DNA from: Fodinicola acaciae
GTDB taxonomy: Bacteria; Actinomycetota; Actinomycetes; Mycobacteriales; HKI-0501
Direction: 5' to 3'
Assembly (NCBI RefSeq): GCF_010993745.1
Contig: NZ_WOTN01000001.1
Coordinates: forward strand, 2,545,235-2,609,234
Length of the DNA: 64,000 nucleotides
The translations under genes and the position numbers were made by a program. The notes below the pieces were generated by a model. It did no database searches. It saw only the letters and a program-made list of their open reading frames with translations, and had not been told where the DNA came from. This document shows positions 7,668-14,016 of the stretch, piece by piece (the first letter of the stretch is position 1; each line of letters begins with the position of its first letter).

Positions 7668-9578
7668 TCAGAGGTGAATTGAGAAAAACTGATCGCCGGG
7701 CCGGGCGCCCACATTTGCGATGGGCGCGTCTCGTGCCGCGAGGGTGTCCTCGCCGAGGTCGAGCTTTTCCTGATAACCGCGGGCCTGTACGGCGAAAAGC
7801 TCGGCGTAATGGCCGCCGTAGGCGATCAGCTCGTCGTGGCTGCCTTTTTCGACGATCTTTCCGCCGTCCAGCACGACAATCTCGTCGGCCTCGCGGACCG
7901 CCCCCAGCCGATGTGACACCAGAAGGCTCGTACGATCCTGCCGATGCTGGCGCAGCCGTTGATGAATGTCATGCTCGGCTCTCGCGTCCAGACCCGAGCT
8001 CGGCTCGTCCAGGATCAGCAGGTCACGGCCGTCACGCAACAAAGTACGCGCCAGCGCGAGGCGTTGCCATTGCCCGCCGGAAAAGACGACGCCCGGCCCA
8101 TCCTCGTTGACTCCGAGAAAACTGCGGCTGAGCATCGTGTCGTAGCCGGCCGGAAGGGCGGCGATCGGCTCGTCGACGCCGGCTCTTTCGGCCGCTCTCC
8201 GGATCTGGTCGCGATCGGCGTCCAGATCGCCGAGCCCGATGTTCTCCGCCGCGGTGAGATCATACGACATGAAATCCTGGAAGAGCACACCCATTCGCCG
8301 ACGCAGCTCGGCCGGCGCAACGTCCCGCAGATCGACGCCGTCCCACTGGATCGAGCCACGGGTCGGATCGTAGAAACGGCACAGAAGTTTGACGAGCGTG
8401 CTCTTGCCGGCGCCGTTCAGTCCCACCAGCGCGATCGCCGCGCCCGCTGGAATTGTCAGGTCGACGCCCCGCAGCACCCACGGCAGGTTTTCGTCGTACC
8501 GGAACCAAACGTCCCGCAACTGGATCCCCTGCCGCAATGCCGGCAGTTTCCCGCCGTCGGTCACCGGCAGGTCCTGCGGAAGCGCCACGATGTCGTCGTG
8601 ATATTGGAAAAACAGCAGCGCCTCGTGTCCGATCGCGAGGCTGTCGACCAAGCCGGCCATGGCCGCCTGCGTACCTGCCACCGCCGCGACGAAAGCGGTC
8701 ACGTCGCCGAGGCTGAGACCGTTGTTCGCGGCAGAATGTACGGCCCAGAGCAGGCCGCCGCCGGCGACAGTCGCACCGAGCCCGACCAGCGCGGACTGGA
8801 CCAGCGCGCTTCGCCGGTCGAGGCCACGCTCGGCGGCCTGTGTCCTTGCCAGTTCGCCGAAAAGCCGGTTCTTCAGGAAGTCGCCGAGCCCGAGCAGCCG
8901 CACTTCCTTGGCCGCCCGCACGTCGGTGATGAGCGATCCGTAAAGCGACTGGCGACGGGCCGTACTCGCCAGATCGGCGATCATCCGGGTCCGCCGCTTC
9001 GACAGCATCAGCCGGGCGATCAGCGACGGCACGGCCGCGGCAACGACCAGAACGGCCATCACCGGACTCAGGATCCAGAGTGTGACGAGCATGCTCAGCA
9101 AGGTGACAGCGCTGCGGCCGGCGGTGAACATCCCCGTCATCGCCGGCATCATCGACGTACCGTTGACGTGCGCGGCCATCTGCAGTTTGTCAAGTATGGC
9201 GGGATTTTCGAAGCGCGACAGGCCCTGGAAGCGGATAACCGCACTGTAGAGCCGATCCTGCATCGTACGGTCGATCCGCCGCCGCAACTCGCCCTGTACG
9301 TACGTCGTCACCTGCGGCAGCACGCCGGTCGCCACACCAATGACCGCGAGTGCCGCCGCCATCGCGAGCAGGGTGATTTCGGTGCGGTGCGCGACAATTC
9401 CGTCAACGACGACCTTGGTCAGCCAGGCCGTCGCGGTCGGCAGCAGACCGCTGACCAGGTTGACGATCAGGGCCAGGAACAAAAGCGGCCAGCCGGCCGC
9501 CCAGCAGAGCCGGAGCATCGCGGCCGCCTGGCGGCCGCGCCGGGGACGGGGTTGTTCTCCCGGCCGGACAAACGTCAC
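7668..9578 (-). CDS. ABC exporter, fused membrane and ATPase domains
   Basis: A 636-residue half-transporter. Six membrane spans occupy about residues 20-310, followed by an ATPase domain with Walker A (GLNGAGKST), the ABC signature (FSGGQWQRLALA), Walker B (LLILDEPSSGLDA) and the switch His (LVSHRLGAV). There is no N-terminal C39 peptidase domain, so any leader removal must be done by another enzyme. The GTG start overlaps the stop of the thioredoxin-like gene by 4 bp (GTGA), showing tight coupling. With the upstream S26 peptidase and cysteine-rich peptide, the likely cargo is that peptide (inference from context). Other small substrates remain possible. Confidence 0.85.
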   Translation of the reverse strand: MTFVRPGEQPRPRRGRQAAAMLRLCWAAGWPLLFLALIVNLVSGLLPTATAWLTKVVVDGIVAHRTEITLLAMAAALAVIGVATGVLPQVTTYVQGELRRRIDRTMQDRLYSAVIRFQGLSRFENPAILDKLQMAAHVNGTSMMPAMTGMFTAGRSAVTLLSMLVTLWILSPVMAVLVVAAAVPSLIARLMLSKRRTRMIADLASTARRQSLYGSLITDVRAAKEVRLLGLGDFLKNRLFGELARTQAAERGLDRRSALVQSALVGLGATVAGGGLLWAVHSAANNGLSLGDVTAFVAAVAGTQAAMAGLVDSLAIGHEALLFFQYHDDIVALPQDLPVTDGGKLPALRQGIQLRDVWFRYDENLPWVLRGVDLTIPAGAAIALVGLNGAGKSTLVKLLCRFYDPTRGSIQWDGVDLRDVAPAELRRRMGVLFQDFMSYDLTAAENIGLGDLDADRDQIRRAAERAGVDEPIAALPAGYDTMLSRSFLGVNEDGPGVVFSGGQWQRLALARTLLRDGRDLLILDEPSSGLDARAEHDIHQRLRQHRQDRTSLLVSHRLGAVREADEIVVLDGGKIVEKGSHDELIAYGGHYAELFAVQARGYQEKLDLGEDTLAARDAPIANVGARPGDQFFSIHL

Positions 9579-10075
9579 ACCGACACCTTGCCTGCCAGCC
9601 CCGCCGCTTCTGTTTGCGCCTGCACAACCGTACCGGTGTCGTCCAGCCGCAGGAATGTCGGATAGGCGCGGATGCCAAGGCCGCGGGCGAATTCGCCGGC
9701 GCTCACGCCGGCAAGAACGCTCGCATCGCCGAACTGCAGGGCCAGCAGGTTGTCTTCAGCGTCCCGCCCGGATATCACCGCCAGCGCACGTTGACCGCGC
9801 AGTGCCGCGGCGAAAATCGGCGCCTGCTCGTGGCAGGTTTCGCAGTCCACCGAAAAAAACCCGACTAGCGTCGGCGACGTGTCCGTGACATCCGGAATCC
9901 GCCGGCCCAGCAACTCGGACACGTCGTAGTCGGTCAGCCGCATGCCAACCGCCTTCCTCAGCTGTTCCAGTTCGGCCTGCTGCTCCCGCAATCGCCGCAG
10001 GACAGCGAAAACCAGCACCAACAGGACCAGGCAGAGCACTCCGACCAGCGTGACCGCGGCCGCGAGGATGGGCAT
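9575..10075 (-). CDS. Membrane-anchored thioredoxin-like (TlpA/MauD-type) protein
   Basis: A 166-residue protein with one N-terminal span (about residues 3-26), a basic/coiled linker (RRLREQQAELEQLRKA), then a thioredoxin fold. The redox motif is C78-E-T-C81 in FFSVDCETCHEQAP, and the cis-Pro loop is IRAYPTFLRLD. The topology suggests the redox domain faces outward, where it could form or isomerise disulfides. It lies between the cysteine-rich peptide gene and the exporter, so acting on the six cysteines of the peptide is the natural guess. No MauE/DsbD-like partner that would recharge it is seen in the window. Confidence 0.8.
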   Translation of the reverse strand: MPILAAAVTLVGVLCLVLLVLVFAVLRRLREQQAELEQLRKAVGMRLTDYDVSELLGRRIPDVTDTSPTLVGFFSVDCETCHEQAPIFAAALRGQRALAVISGRDAEDNLLALQFGDASVLAGVSAGEFARGLGIRAYPTFLRLDDTGTVVQAQTEAAGLAGKVSV

Positions 10076-10108
10076 CGGTTATCTCTCTCGCTTTCCGATC
10101 GTAGGACA

Positions 10109-10134
10109 CCGGGTGGGCCAACCTGCCCACCCGG
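10109..10134 (-). terminator. Hairpin just after the peptide gene (possible attenuator)
   Basis: A perfect 10-bp stem, CCGGGTGGGC with GCCCACCCGG, encloses a 6-nt loop and starts 12 bases after the stop codon of the small peptide gene. No U tract follows on the minus strand, so it may protect the 3' end of a short peptide message or cause partial termination before the thioredoxin-like and exporter genes. Such hairpins often raise precursor expression over that of processing genes. Confidence 0.6.
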
Positions 10135-10145
10135 CGTTGCCACCG

Positions 10146-10334
10146 TCAGACCAGACAGTTCACATTCGAGTGATAAACACAGGCCGTACAGCCGCTGTCG
10201 TCGCAGTACTTGTAAACCCAGGTGTTCACGAAGTCTTCGCAGTAGCAGGCGTAATAAGCCCCCGCCTTCGCCTCCGCCTTGGGTACGAAACGCTGCAGCA
10301 GCTGATCACCGATCCGGTTCATGACTTTGCGCAT
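10146..10334 (-). CDS. Cysteine-rich small peptide, putative exported precursor
   Basis: A 62-residue product. The start at 10334 is chosen because GGGAG stands about 11 bases upstream; the longer frame to 10457 has no such site. A second Met at residue 5 is possible. Residues 1-24 look like a leader (MNRIGDQLLQRFVPKAEAKA) that is amphipathic rather than a Sec signal, since it lacks a hydrophobic core. It ends in AKA before GAYYACYC, a plausible cleavage site. The remaining 38 residues are aromatic-rich, with six cysteines (positions 30, 32, 44, 49, 52, 60), allowing three disulfides. No lanthionine, radical-SAM or YcaO enzyme is nearby. Function is unknown; bacteriocin-like, signalling or structural roles are all open. 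Confidence 0.7.
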   Translation of the reverse strand: MRKVMNRIGDQLLQRFVPKAEAKAGAYYACYCEDFVNTWVYKYCDDSGCTACVYHSNVNCLV

Positions 10335-10511
10335 ACCGAGAATTTCTCCCTTCCCCTGGACGCCGACAGCCGGCGCCCACGAGCGACAGACCGTAAATAG
10401 CCGCACCGGAGAAGTCCAGATAGACCACGGTTTTAGCGCCAAAACACCAAGTGGCATAGATCACACGTATTGCCGGAACTACCTCCGTAACGTCGCCTTT
10501 TGGCGCTTTCT

Positions 10512-10952
10512 TTACCGTTGCCCAACCTGCCGTATCACGACGCCAAGCAGTGCGTCCGCGGCATAGAAACCCCATGTCCGGGAATCGGAGCTGACCTGAC
10601 CGTCGCCGCGTACGACAAGTTTCCCCGGCGGCACGACGTCCGGGCCGCCGGCCGGCACGTCCCCCGGTGTCACCGGGTCACCCGGCATGGCCACCACGCG
10701 CTTGACGTTCCATCGGGTTTTGTCGTCGGGACTGGTCAGTGTCACCGGCGGCTCGAGTACGACGATGTCGCCGTGCCGCACCCTTTCCGGACCACGCCGG
10801 CGTACCAACACCCGGTCGCCGTGTCGCAACGTGGGCGTCATGCTGGTGCCCTCGACTGTCACCAGCACCAACTGCCGCCGCGCCCACAGAGCGGCGCCGG
10901 CCGCGCCAGCCAGCACGCCCACCGCCGCAACCGCCACCCAGGTCCGCCGCAT
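10512..10952 (-). CDS. S26-family signal peptidase
   Basis: A 146-residue protein with one N-terminal membrane span (about residues 5-25), then the S26 boxes: the serine nucleophile in VEGTSMTPTL, the lysine general base in WNVKRVVAMPGD and the downstream GDGQVSSDSRTWG region. It is shorter than a housekeeping LepB and lies at the head of the peptide cluster, so a dedicated role in trimming the peptide leader at the AKA site is likely (inference). The start at 10952 has AAAGGA a few bases upstream. About 180 bases separate it from the peptide gene, enough for a second promoter. Confidence 0.85.
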   Translation of the reverse strand: MRRTWVAVAAVGVLAGAAGAALWARRQLVLVTVEGTSMTPTLRHGDRVLVRRRGPERVRHGDIVVLEPPVTLTSPDDKTRWNVKRVVAMPGDPVTPGDVPAGGPDVVPPGKLVVRGDGQVSSDSRTWGFYAADALLGVVIRQVGQR

Positions 10953-11264: not shown

Positions 11265-12019
11265 TCAGGCGTCACGGCTTTGGGTGACCTTGATGGCGAG
11301 GAGCAGCAGCACGATCGCGGCCGCGACGGCGTACGCGGCGGCGAGCCAGGGATGGTAGGGAAGCGTGGCCGGGTCGAACTGGCCGCCGTCGACTTTTGGG
11401 TTGCCGGCGGCGAGAAAGTTCTCGGCCGCGGTGAAGGGCATCCAGGGTTGGATGCGCGGGCCGACGATCGGTATGAGTCCGATGATGCGATCGAGCAGGA
11501 TGGGTTCCAGCAGAACGATCGCGACGGCGGCCGCGGTGGTGCGTACGAGAGCGGCCACCGCGGTCGCGATGACCGCGGCAATGGCGAAAACCAGGCCCGT
11601 GCCAGCAACCGCGCGCAATGCCGGCTCAGTGTCGAGTGCCGGAGCGCCGCCAGGTGCGAGCACCGCGACGAAGGCCCACGCCGCGAAGGCCGTCACCACG
11701 CCGGCCGCTCCGGCCGCGATCGCGGTGATGGCGGCCTTGGCGATCAGCACCGGAGCGCGGCCGGGGACCGCGATGAAGCTGGTTTTGATGGTGCCAAAGC
11801 GGTATTCGCTCGCCACGAACGTCGCGGCCAGGACCAGGATCGCCATCATCGCGGTCGGCCGGCCGGTCTGGCTGGTCGCGATGGTGACGGCGGTGCCGGA
11901 CTGTCTGGCGGCCGCGGTGAATCCGCCGGCGAAGACCAGCGCCAACACCGGCGCCGCGGCCAGGCACCACCAGGTCGACCGCAGGGTCGTCAGCTTGATG
12001 CCTTCGGCGTGCAGGACGT

Positions 12020-12023
<4 letters not shown>
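11265..12023 (-). CDS. ABC-2 type exporter, membrane subunit
   Basis: A 252-residue protein with about six hydrophobic spans. The N-terminus MNVLHAEGIKLTTLRSTWW is the classic start of actinobacterial ABC-2 permeases: a short cytoplasmic helix with EGIKLTTLRS. It is followed by the ASEYRFGTIKTSF loop found in these proteins between spans two and three. The start overlaps the ATPase gene by 4 bp. With the ATPase at 12020-12937 it forms an export pump for an unknown small molecule or drug, probably controlled by the divergent TetR regulator. Confidence 0.85.
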
Positions 12024-12933
<910 letters not shown>

Positions 12934-12937
<4 letters not shown>

Positions 12938-14016
12938 GGCGTGTGCGCCGCGAGGTAGGCGATGACCGGGCGGTCGTCGGCGTCACGCGACACGAAACCG
13001 AGATGAGCATCTGGACGTACGACAAACAGCGCGTCACCGCCCAGGTCGGTGTCCACGCCGTACGCCTCGTCGGCCTTCCACTCGGCGTCGATCCGGTATG
13101 CCAGCGAGCCACCTCGCGCGGCGATCCACCGCGGCGTCTCCTCGTACGCGGAACCGAAGGCGAGCACCGTCCAGTGCGGTCCGCGGAACAGGTCGAACAG
13201 CCGGCCGCCGGTGTGCGCGTTGACGGCGTCCGGCGCCCGGTCACCGGCGGCGAGGCGATCACCCGGCTCGGTCGCGTACGTGAAGGTCAGGCCGGAGGTG
13301 TCACGGTCGGACAGGCCTTTCAGGCCGCCGGCGCCGTCGCCGTGCGAGCGCCGGCGGCGGACCTCGGAATCCTCCAGCACGCGCCGGCTATGCCTACGTT
13401 GGCCTGGTAGCGCGACAGCCAGGACGCCGATCGGAGGCGGTCGCCGGGAAGGCCGGTCACCTGCTCGAACACGCGCCGCAGGGGTCGCCACGGTCAGCTC
13501 GCCTTCCACGGCCGACGACTGGAACTGGAAGTCGTCGGTGCTCGGCAGCGGCCTGAGACCGAGAAACCCCCGCTCCGGATCAATCCACACGTGGCTGCGG
13601 TCGCGGTCGAGGCCGTCGACGCGTACGTCCGCGATCAGGCCCTGGTCCTCCTCCAGCGTCTCGCCGTCGAACGAGATACCGAGCAACCGCCGGACAGTGC
13701 TGCGCGCGCCGTCGCAGCCGACCACGTACGCGGCACGCAGCTCGATCTGGCGGCCGTCGCGTACCAGCGTCACCGTGACGCCGTCGCCGTCCTGTGCCAG
13801 CCCGACGACCTCACTGGAGCGCTCGACCTCGACATCCGACCGGCTCAGCAGTCCGCGAAGCACCTGCTCGACGCGCCACTGCGGCGTCCACAGCGGCAGC
13901 TCCGGACAGGGCACGGTCGGCCCGGCGTCCCAGCCGGAGGCGGTGAGCACCTCGCGCGCCAGCTCACACGCCAACGTGAGGCCGGTCGGACCAGCCCCCA
14001 CCACAAAGACATCCAT
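12934..14016 (-). pseudogene. Degraded FAD-dependent monooxygenase (PheA/TfdB-type)
   Basis: The frame is open for 360 codons but the protein is damaged. The FAD-binding GxGxxG (VVGAGPTGLTLACELAR) is present, then about 45 expected residues are missing before DAGPTVPCPELPLWTPQ. The DG motif (YVVGCDGARSTVRRL) is intact. From about 13475 the frame turns into an Arg-rich stretch, while another frame continues sensibly (RVFEQVTGLPGDRLRS, then WLSRYQANVGIA). The second FAD motif GDAAH is absent, and the C-terminal domain resumes at FTYATEPGDRLAAGDRAP. Intact relatives have about 500 residues. A working enzyme is unlikely, although start, stop and the 4-bp overlap with the next gene survive. Confidence 0.7.

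What the first reader, a model, noticed from the sequence alone, without database searches (positions are those of the whole stretch)
7668..10952. Compact cysteine-rich peptide export cluster without known RiPP-modifying enzymes
Seen: four minus-strand genes in order, S26 signal peptidase, 62-residue peptide with six cysteines, membrane thioredoxin-like protein with CETC, and an ABC exporter lacking a C39 peptidase domain. The peptide leader has no Sec hydrophobic core and ends AKA before GAYYACYC. No lanthipeptide, radical-SAM or YcaO gene is near. Inference: the exporter moves the peptide, the S26 enzyme trims it and the thioredoxin-like protein sets up to three disulfides. This combination is not a standard named class I know. 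It is intact amid pseudogenes, suggesting selection.
Basis: partly seen in the sequence, partly recalled or inferred. Interest (0 to 1): 0.8.

Follow-up and report, generated by a model that had tools for sequence, protein, structure and literature searches.

The report
Exported disulfide-rich peptide maturation cluster
A soil actinomycete carries a four-gene cluster that very likely makes, exports, trims and oxidises a small cysteine-rich peptide, and relatives of the peptide's leader mark many such clusters with ever-changing cores in other actinomycetes, a largely unexplored group of secreted mini-proteins.

Summary
All four minus-strand genes are open: an S26 peptidase, a 62-residue peptide with six core cysteines, a membrane-anchored TlpA/ResA-like thioredoxin, and an ABC exporter without a C39 domain. 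The host genus is probably Fodinicola (contig-length match). The peptide matches no Pfam, NCBIfam or PHROGs model but belongs to a broad actinomycete family with one leader (about LADRLLxxFVPKxTAxA) before a highly variable core.

A leader profile was tested on 40 fetched loci: 39 lie beside this machinery, 35 with TlpA, ABC and S26 together; 0 of 20 arbitrary control windows do. One of the 40 repeats a training locus; the miss is a false match. MauE is the usual fifth gene and is missing from the window cluster. Cores have an even cysteine count in 84 of 91 cases. The window peptide is under stronger purifying selection than its cluster mates (dN/dS 0.03).

Best reading: a RiPP-like, ABC-exported, S26-trimmed, disulfide-bonded secreted peptide of unknown activity. 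decRiPPter (2020) flagged mauE-containing Streptomyces candidates that probably overlap this group; my searches found no characterised member.

The parts
10512..10952 (-). S26 (type I signal peptidase-like) membrane peptidase, 146 aa; proposed leader peptidase
   Evidence: PF10502 73.7 bits, TIGR02227 69.4 bits against cut-off 47; Ser37 present in 55 of 56 aligned relatives (1 gap) and Lys84 in 56 of 56
10842..10844 (-). codon of the predicted catalytic Ser37 (S-M-x-P motif)
   Evidence: alignment of 56 relatives; role recalled from the S26 family
10701..10703 (-). codon of the predicted catalytic Lys84 (K-R motif)
   Evidence: alignment of 56 relatives; role recalled from the S26 family
10346..10352 (-). 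probable ribosome-binding site (AAGGGAG) of the peptide gene
   Evidence: sequence printed
10146..10334 (-). precursor peptide gene, 62 aa
   Evidence: no Pfam, NCBIfam or PHROGs match; orthologue in Fodinicola feengrottensis and paralogues elsewhere in the same genome
10263..10334 (-). leader, residues 1-24, ending A-K-A
   Evidence: leader profile A3: D10, P18, A22 nearly invariant, A24 invariant in 43; own score 53.9 bits (this row is in the profile)
10149..10262 (-). predicted mature core, 38 aa, six Cys
   Evidence: 35 of 38 identical to the F. feengrottensis core; dN/dS 0.03 over 43 codons, five of them leader
9575..10075 (-). membrane-anchored TlpA/ResA-like thioredoxin protein, CETC, 166 aa
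   Evidence: profile search of PDB sequences hits thioredoxin-family chains (E 1.1e-13) and ResA (2.7e-10); AlphaFold model pLDDT 77.6 with Foldseek hits to DsbE, CcmG and ResA; C78, C81, P139 invariant in 18
7668..9578 (-). ABC exporter (membrane domain fused to ATPase), 636 aa, no C39 peptidase domain; start overlaps the TlpA stop
   Evidence: PF00664 and PF00005; an ABC relative (E below 1e-80) in 35 of 40 leader-hit loci

Best explanation
The four genes make and mature one secreted peptide. The ribosome makes the 62-residue precursor (inferred). Its 24-residue leader, shared across the family, is the handle for the dedicated ABC exporter, which moves the peptide across the membrane without the Sec pathway (inferred from the leader, the missing Sec core and genetic linkage). 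The S26 peptidase stands in for the missing C39 domain: it cuts after A-K-A and frees a core of about 38 residues (inferred; site and catalytic residues are conserved). The TlpA-like protein, normally with a MauE membrane partner that this genome keeps in other clusters, shuttles thiols so that the six cysteines end as three disulfides (inferred from the even cysteine counts and the linked thiol enzymes). The family keeps the leader and changes the core, as RiPP and bacteriocin precursors do. The product is most likely a stable extracellular mini-protein used against or towards competitors (activity inferred; roughly even odds of antagonism against signalling or another role).
For: Linkage: hits of a leader profile (first 34 residues) from the class search were fetched; 39 of 40 loci have machinery, 35 of 40 have TlpA+ABC+S26, 36 of 40 MauE, against 0 of 20 controls (one locus repeats a training locus, the miss is a P-type ATPase). 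The 39 nonredundant held-out precursors reach at most 0.71 similarity to any training row over 34 residues. Own genome: seven leaders at E<=4.8e-7, next 0.059 (six of the seven were training rows), all in loci with machinery. Disulfides: even cysteine counts in 84 of 91 nonredundant cores, 37 of 39 among precursors taken without a cysteine filter. Selection: dN/dS 0.03 for the peptide against 0.26 TlpA, 0.34 S26, 0.12 a piece of ABC. Cut site: A at -3 in 87 of 91 and at -1 in 81 of 91 (partly set by the pattern used). S26 Ser and Lys conserved. TlpA is a thioredoxin-fold protein. SARP-type regulator in the fetched stretch of 25 of 38 held-out loci, 0 of 20 controls.
Against: Nothing is shown by experiment. 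The window cluster and its orthologue have no MauE match. No SARP regulator was found in the first 25 kb of the window, and only 17 of 45 discovery loci have one. By charge, TlpA is N-out/C-in in 62 of 62 usable proteins, and the MauE CxC loop also lies on the positive side, which puts the thiol chemistry on the cytoplasmic face rather than outside. In F. feengrottensis the precursor frame is interrupted in the leader and the ABC gene is in three frames; that draft is 74% complete, so sequencing error is likely, but decay is not excluded. The core has no confident fold (pLDDT 60.5) and no PDB sequence relative. No immunity gene was recognised. 7 of 91 cores have odd cysteine counts.
Confidence: 0.8

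Rival explanations
1. The thiol enzymes act on the cytoplasmic face before export: TlpA and MauE keep the precursor reduced and unfolded, or pre-form a disulfide, and final oxidation happens outside with general enzymes.
For: In 62 of 62 distinct TlpA-like proteins with a clear anchor and a start codon before it there are fewer K/R before the anchor (mean 0.03) than in the 15 residues after (median 4). The CxC of MauE (69 of 69 distinct proteins) lies in a positively charged loop. Both point to C-in by the positive-inside rule (recalled).
Against: The positive-inside rule is only a tendency. ResA, CcmG and MauD relatives are described as extracytoplasmic (recalled). The charged stretch may be a juxtamembrane helix.
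Confidence: 0.3
2. The core is a metal-binding or structural peptide (metallothionein-like, or a surface component), with the thiol enzymes keeping its cysteines available for metal.
For: Cys-rich core. One relative (L062) shows a weak zinc-ribbon likeness (18.8 bits, cut-off 31.3; 19.2 bits, cut-off 34.4). The leader resembles that of nickel SOD, a metalloprotein.
Against: Cysteine spacing differs between subfamilies while the leader stays (sequences). Even cysteine counts in 84 of 91 cores. SARP regulators and plasmid copies suggest specialised metabolism.
Confidence: 0.1
3. The peptide is an export-coupled signal (pheromone) sensed by the SARP/NB-ARC regulators next to many clusters, not an antagonist.
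For: SARP-type regulators in 25 of 38 held-out loci, one with BTAD, NB-ARC and TPR domains. No immunity gene was recognised.
Against: The regulator was not found near the window cluster. High core variation and several precursors per genome fit an arsenal better. G156 has at least nine dispersed precursors and one machinery locus.
Confidence: 0.25
4. A general thiol exporter and redox module (CydDC/CcmG-like) sits by chance beside a small ORF that is not a product.
For: The ABC protein scores against CydC/CydD among many models, all those shown below cut-offs. Small Cys-rich frames occur by chance in this window (6 counted, this one included).
Against: dN/dS 0.03 for the frame. Leader-first search finds the machinery in 39 of 40 loci and 0 of 20 controls.
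Confidence: 0.02

Closest known systems
decRiPPter mauE/mauD candidate RiPP families of Streptomyces (PLoS Biol 2020, PMC7794033)
   Same: MauE, in one family also MauD, with a precursor of at least 8 cysteines; a modification role proposed there, with disulfide bridges mentioned for MauE (passages read)
   Different: A term search of its main text gave no 'signal peptidase' or 'thioredoxin', and the passages shown describe no shared leader. Its precursor sequences are in a supplement I could not open, so identity with this family is likely but unverified. No product of these families is described in the passages read.
Pediocin-like (class IIa) bacteriocin operons (recalled)
   Same: Small Cys-containing precursor, thiol-disulfide accessory protein, dedicated ABC exporter
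   Different: There the ABC protein carries a C39 peptidase that cuts a double-glycine leader; here there is no C39 domain, the leader ends A-x-A and an S26 enzyme is present. Cores here carry 6 or 8 cysteines in 74 of 91.
Class I lasso peptide clusters with disulfides and DoxX-type genes (siamycin/humidimycin/aborycin type; search listing and recall only)
   Same: Actinomycete peptide clusters with DoxX-type or thiol genes and an ABC exporter
   Different: No lasso cyclase or B1/B2 genes among the families found here; leader removal is by an S26 candidate
Nickel superoxide dismutase leader and its maturation protease SodX (S26-like; pairing recalled)
   Same: Short leader with hydrophobic residues, P and a final A-x-A before H-C; the own-genome NiSOD leader scores 12.4 bits on the peptide PSSM (1.5e-5 of 200,000 random 18-mers reach that)
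   Different: The median of 30 NiSOD leaders is -5.2 bits, and with A-x-A kept 5.5% of shuffles reach it. The window S26 scores better as signal peptidase I (69.4 bits, over its cut-off) than as SodX (37.1 bits, cut-off 63.25). The genome's best SodX-model match is another gene, beside NiSOD (38.9 bits, also under the cut-off).

Membership tests
RiPP (broad sense: ribosomal precursor with leader and core, matured and exported) | Conserved leader before a variable core in relatives | tested here: met
   Leader alignment of 43; 91 nonredundant cores. In nine close precursors pN/pS is 0.083 in the leader and 0.456 in the core
RiPP (broad sense: ribosomal precursor with leader and core, matured and exported) | Dedicated maturation and export genes beside the precursor | tested here: met
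   39 of 40 loci against 0 of 20 controls
RiPP (broad sense: ribosomal precursor with leader and core, matured and exported) | Post-translational modification of the core demonstrated | not testable with these tools
   Only inferred disulfides (even cysteine counts)
Lanthipeptide / sactipeptide / thiazole peptide | Lan, radical-SAM or YcaO enzyme in the cluster | tested here: not met
   None in the four cluster genes (for the ABC protein the best 25 of 193 NCBIfam rows were shown) nor among 20 neighbouring frames scanned with Pfam
Class II bacteriocin with double-glycine leader | C39 peptidase domain on the exporter and GG cut site | tested here: not met
   No C39 family at E<=1; leader ends A-K-A
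Sec-secreted peptide | N-terminal hydrophobic core of a signal peptide | tested here: not met
   8 of 24 leader residues charged, highest 8-residue hydropathy mean 0.19; no signal-peptide predictor was available
Type I signal peptidase (S26) | Ser/Lys catalytic dyad and family score | tested here: met
   TIGR02227 69.4 bits over cut-off 47; Ser37 in 55 of 56, Lys84 in 56 of 56
TlpA/ResA-like thioredoxins | Thioredoxin fold with CxxC and the loop proline | tested here: met
   Pfam Redoxin alone stays below its cut-off (18.5 against 26.6)
decRiPPter mauE candidate families | Same precursor sequence family | not testable with these tools
   Their precursor table is a supplement that could not be opened
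decRiPPter mauE candidate families | mauE homologue in the cluster | tested here: not met
   No MauE match at the window cluster; present in 36 of 40 leader-hit loci

The most novel reading that the evidence does not exclude
A large, unnamed class of actinomycete secreted mini-proteins works like a venom arsenal: one leader, recognised by a dedicated ABC exporter and S26 peptidase, carries endlessly diversified disulfide cores. The leader may be borrowed from, or converged with, that of nickel SOD. The thiol pair TlpA/MauE may act on the cytoplasmic face, and in some genomes one machinery locus serves many dispersed precursors.
Probability: 0.35. Interest if true: 0.88.

Novelty: new variant of a known kind. 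Interest (0 to 1): 0.75.

Why it matters
Actinomycetes are the main source of known antibiotics, yet the window peptide and ten relatives tested from this family reach no Pfam or NCBIfam cut-off and, but for one weak match, no PHROGs family. The leader profile turns the family into something that can be mined at once: it points to precursors and machinery together. It also raises a testable question of mechanism, namely an ABC exporter paired with an S26 signal peptidase in place of the usual C39 domain, and a thiol pair whose side of the membrane is unclear. Stable, hypervariable disulfide scaffolds are of practical use as leads for antimicrobials and binders.

Tried and rejected
Searches with the peptide alone (Pfam, NCBIfam, PHROGs, PDB) gave nothing; ten relatives gave nothing over a cut-off and one weak PHROGs match, 17.8 bits, for L062. 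The four-row profile A1 at E<=0.05 gave 52 of 397 genomes in the order, with chance matches among the weak ones (several listed loci hold no Cys-rich frame), so no prevalence is claimed from it. Profile A3 at E<=0.1 gave 207 of 394 genomes in the class, many of the weak ones inside long unrelated frames; at E<=2e-4 I count 21 of 394 genomes, including the window's own, one false match (G469) and one not inspected (G638). First looks score only some candidates per genome, so counts are lower bounds. A phylum sample of 296 genomes, some of the same class, had only the window's genome at E<=2e-4.

Common descent of the nickel SOD leader and the peptide leader was considered; the likeness could be shared cut-site needs. 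A PADLOC scan gave only matches to the ABC protein. AlphaFold on the core was not informative. An all-against-all neighbour clustering of 86 loci was confounded by antisense frames; only the SARP lead was followed, so a conserved immunity gene may have been missed. My first count of TlpA charge (68 of 68) took the start codon nearest the anchor, even inside it, which favours the result; it is replaced (62 of 62; 83 distinct proteins, 21 without a usable start set aside). Literature: ten answered paper runs in an open-access library; several listed only part of their hits. I saw listings only, apart from passages of PMC7794033 and PMC11118758 (unrelated). Only the former is a direct precedent.

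Rows left out before a count: ABC matches weaker than 1e-80; TlpA, S26 and MauE rows weaker than 1e-9; S26 and MauE hits of 80 residues or fewer, and repeats, and the same for MauE. The 63 discovery peptides were filtered to at least 4 core cysteines; the 45 typed for one search were not, but the false match L226 and the repeat L194 were not among them. The leader profile runs about 10 residues into the core.
Full report
What is there. The window holds four adjacent minus-strand genes in the order S26 peptidase, 62-residue peptide, TlpA-like protein, ABC exporter. The S26 gene scores 69.4 bits as signal peptidase I against a cut-off of 47. The peptide has no match in Pfam, NCBIfam or PHROGs, and its core none in PDB sequences. 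The TlpA-like protein stays below Pfam cut-offs on its own, but a profile of 18 relatives hits thioredoxin-family and ResA chains at E down to 1.1e-13, its model (pLDDT 77.6) matches DsbE, CcmG and ResA, and C78, C81 and P139 are invariant. The ABC protein has the membrane and ATPase domains and no C39 domain.

The peptide is real. A small Cys-rich frame alone proves little: six such frames, this one included, exist in the window. The same peptide exists in F. feengrottensis in the same gene order. Over 43 codons it has 39 identical residues, 16 synonymous and 4 nonsynonymous changes, dN/dS 0.03, against 0.26 for TlpA, 0.34 for S26 and 0.12 for a piece of the ABC gene. Synonymous change is high (dS 1.07-1.31) and only two sequences are compared, so the order of these values matters more than the numbers. 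The precursor frame is interrupted in the leader in that draft, which is 74% complete and has its ABC gene in three frames; sequencing error is the likely cause.

A family with one leader. The window's genome has seven such precursors at E<=4.8e-7 with the next match at 0.059 (six of the seven were rows of the profile), in the window locus and three other loci (L013, L083, L085), all with machinery; L084 is a further locus with MauE, TlpA and S26 in which no precursor was detected. From 43 precursors I built a profile of the first 34 residues: D10, P18 and A22 nearly invariant, A24 invariant. A class-wide search gave 41 loci outside the window's genome at E<=2e-4, of which I fetched 40. In 39 of 40 at least one machinery gene lies in the fetched stretch; TlpA 38, S26 38, MauE 36, ABC 35, and TlpA+ABC+S26 together in 35. 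Of 20 arbitrary windows in five of the same genomes, none has any. One of the 40 (L194) repeats a training locus (L090) and four more come from that same genome (G518); the miss (L226) is a P-type ATPase. The 39 nonredundant held-out precursors reach at most 0.71 similarity to any training row over 34 residues. In one genome (G156) at least nine precursors lie scattered with no TlpA, S26 or MauE match in the fetched 13-kb stretches, only weaker ABC matches, while the single TlpA match of that genome sits with S26, ABC and MauE in one locus.

Disulfides. Of 91 nonredundant cores 84 have an even number of cysteines, 74 of them 6 or 8; among those taken without a cysteine filter it is 37 of 39. 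Sequences are related, so the binomial value in that call overstates the case. In nine close precursors of one unnamed genus all 10 cysteine columns are invariant while 19 of 47 core columns vary; pN/pS is 0.083 in the leader and 0.456 in the core.

Mechanism. Shown: gene content, linkage, conservation, selection. Inferred: export by the ABC protein, cut by S26 after A-x-A, disulfides made with TlpA and MauE. A sits at -3 in 87 and at -1 in 81 of 91, which partly reflects the pattern used to find them. The S26 Ser and Lys are conserved. One result cuts against the simple picture that oxidation happens outside: by charge all 62 usable TlpA-like anchors are N-out/C-in, and the MauE CxC (69 of 69) is in a positively charged loop. 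I keep cytoplasmic-side chemistry as a rival at 0.3. The window cluster has no MauE match; other clusters of the same genome do, so it may be supplied in trans.

Role. SARP-type regulators lie in 25 of 38 held-out loci, 0 of 20 controls and 17 of 45 discovery loci, but were not found in the first 25 kb of the window (family identity of one). Copies occur on Streptomyces plasmids, with precursors seen in three of them. No immunity gene was recognised; a two-gene ABC transporter (ATPase, weak ABC-2 permease match) upstream of the window's S26 gene (11268-12937) is not seen beside the F. feengrottensis cluster (ORF list). The best guess is an extracellular peptide acting on competitors, with signalling close behind.

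Leader and nickel SOD. The genome's own NiSOD leader (RLFRWFTPSITASA before HC) resembles the peptide leaders and scores 12.4 bits on their PSSM, which 1.5e-5 of random 18-mers reach; but the median of 30 NiSOD leaders is -5.2 bits, and 5.5% of shuffles that keep A-x-A reach that median. The NiSOD protease SodX is itself S26-like (recalled), and a gene with a SodX score of 38.9 bits, under the cut-off, lies beside NiSOD here. I treat this as a lead, not a result.

Known or new. decRiPPter (PMC7794033; passages read) listed three mauE-containing Streptomyces candidate families, one with mauD, with precursors of at least 8 cysteines, and proposed a modification role. That is the nearest precedent and probably overlaps this family in Streptomyces; its precursor table could not be opened. 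Ten literature searches (named in Tried and rejected) listed no paper that I recognised as characterising a member. I rate it a new variant of a known kind: it works like a RiPP or disulfide bacteriocin system, with an S26 peptidase and A-x-A leader where class II bacteriocins have a C39 domain and double glycine (recalled).

Noticed in passing
L255 and L073-L082 (G156): One genome has a single machinery locus (S26, ABC, TlpA, MauE) and at least nine precursors dispersed elsewhere, as if one exporter served many peptides in trans.
   Followed up: partly
L089 (window's own genome, C2:1536361-1536723): The nickel SOD leader resembles the peptide leaders, and a gene with a SodX-like score under the cut-off lies beside it (C2:1536915-1537130).
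   Followed up: partly
L013 9846-10388: In the second cluster of the same genome the MauE gene is split between two frames; decay or sequencing error.
   Followed up: no
window 11268-12937: A two-gene ABC transporter (ATPase and weak ABC-2 permease match) on the same strand upstream of the S26 gene; a possible immunity exporter, not seen beside the related cluster in Fodinicola feengrottensis.
   Followed up: partly
L202 2625-6128 and 24 other held-out loci: SARP-type regulators lie next to many of these clusters; the one in L202 has BTAD, NB-ARC and TPR domains.
   Followed up: partly
L119 4192-4684, L120 4467-4673, L121 4466-4687: The cluster is carried on Streptomyces plasmids (S. clavuligerus, Streptomyces sp. 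NBC_00053, S. atratus) with the precursors annotated only as hypothetical proteins.
   Followed up: partly
window 12937-14016: FAD-binding monooxygenase frame whose Pfam match begins at profile position 92, so it looks truncated or rearranged.
   Followed up: no
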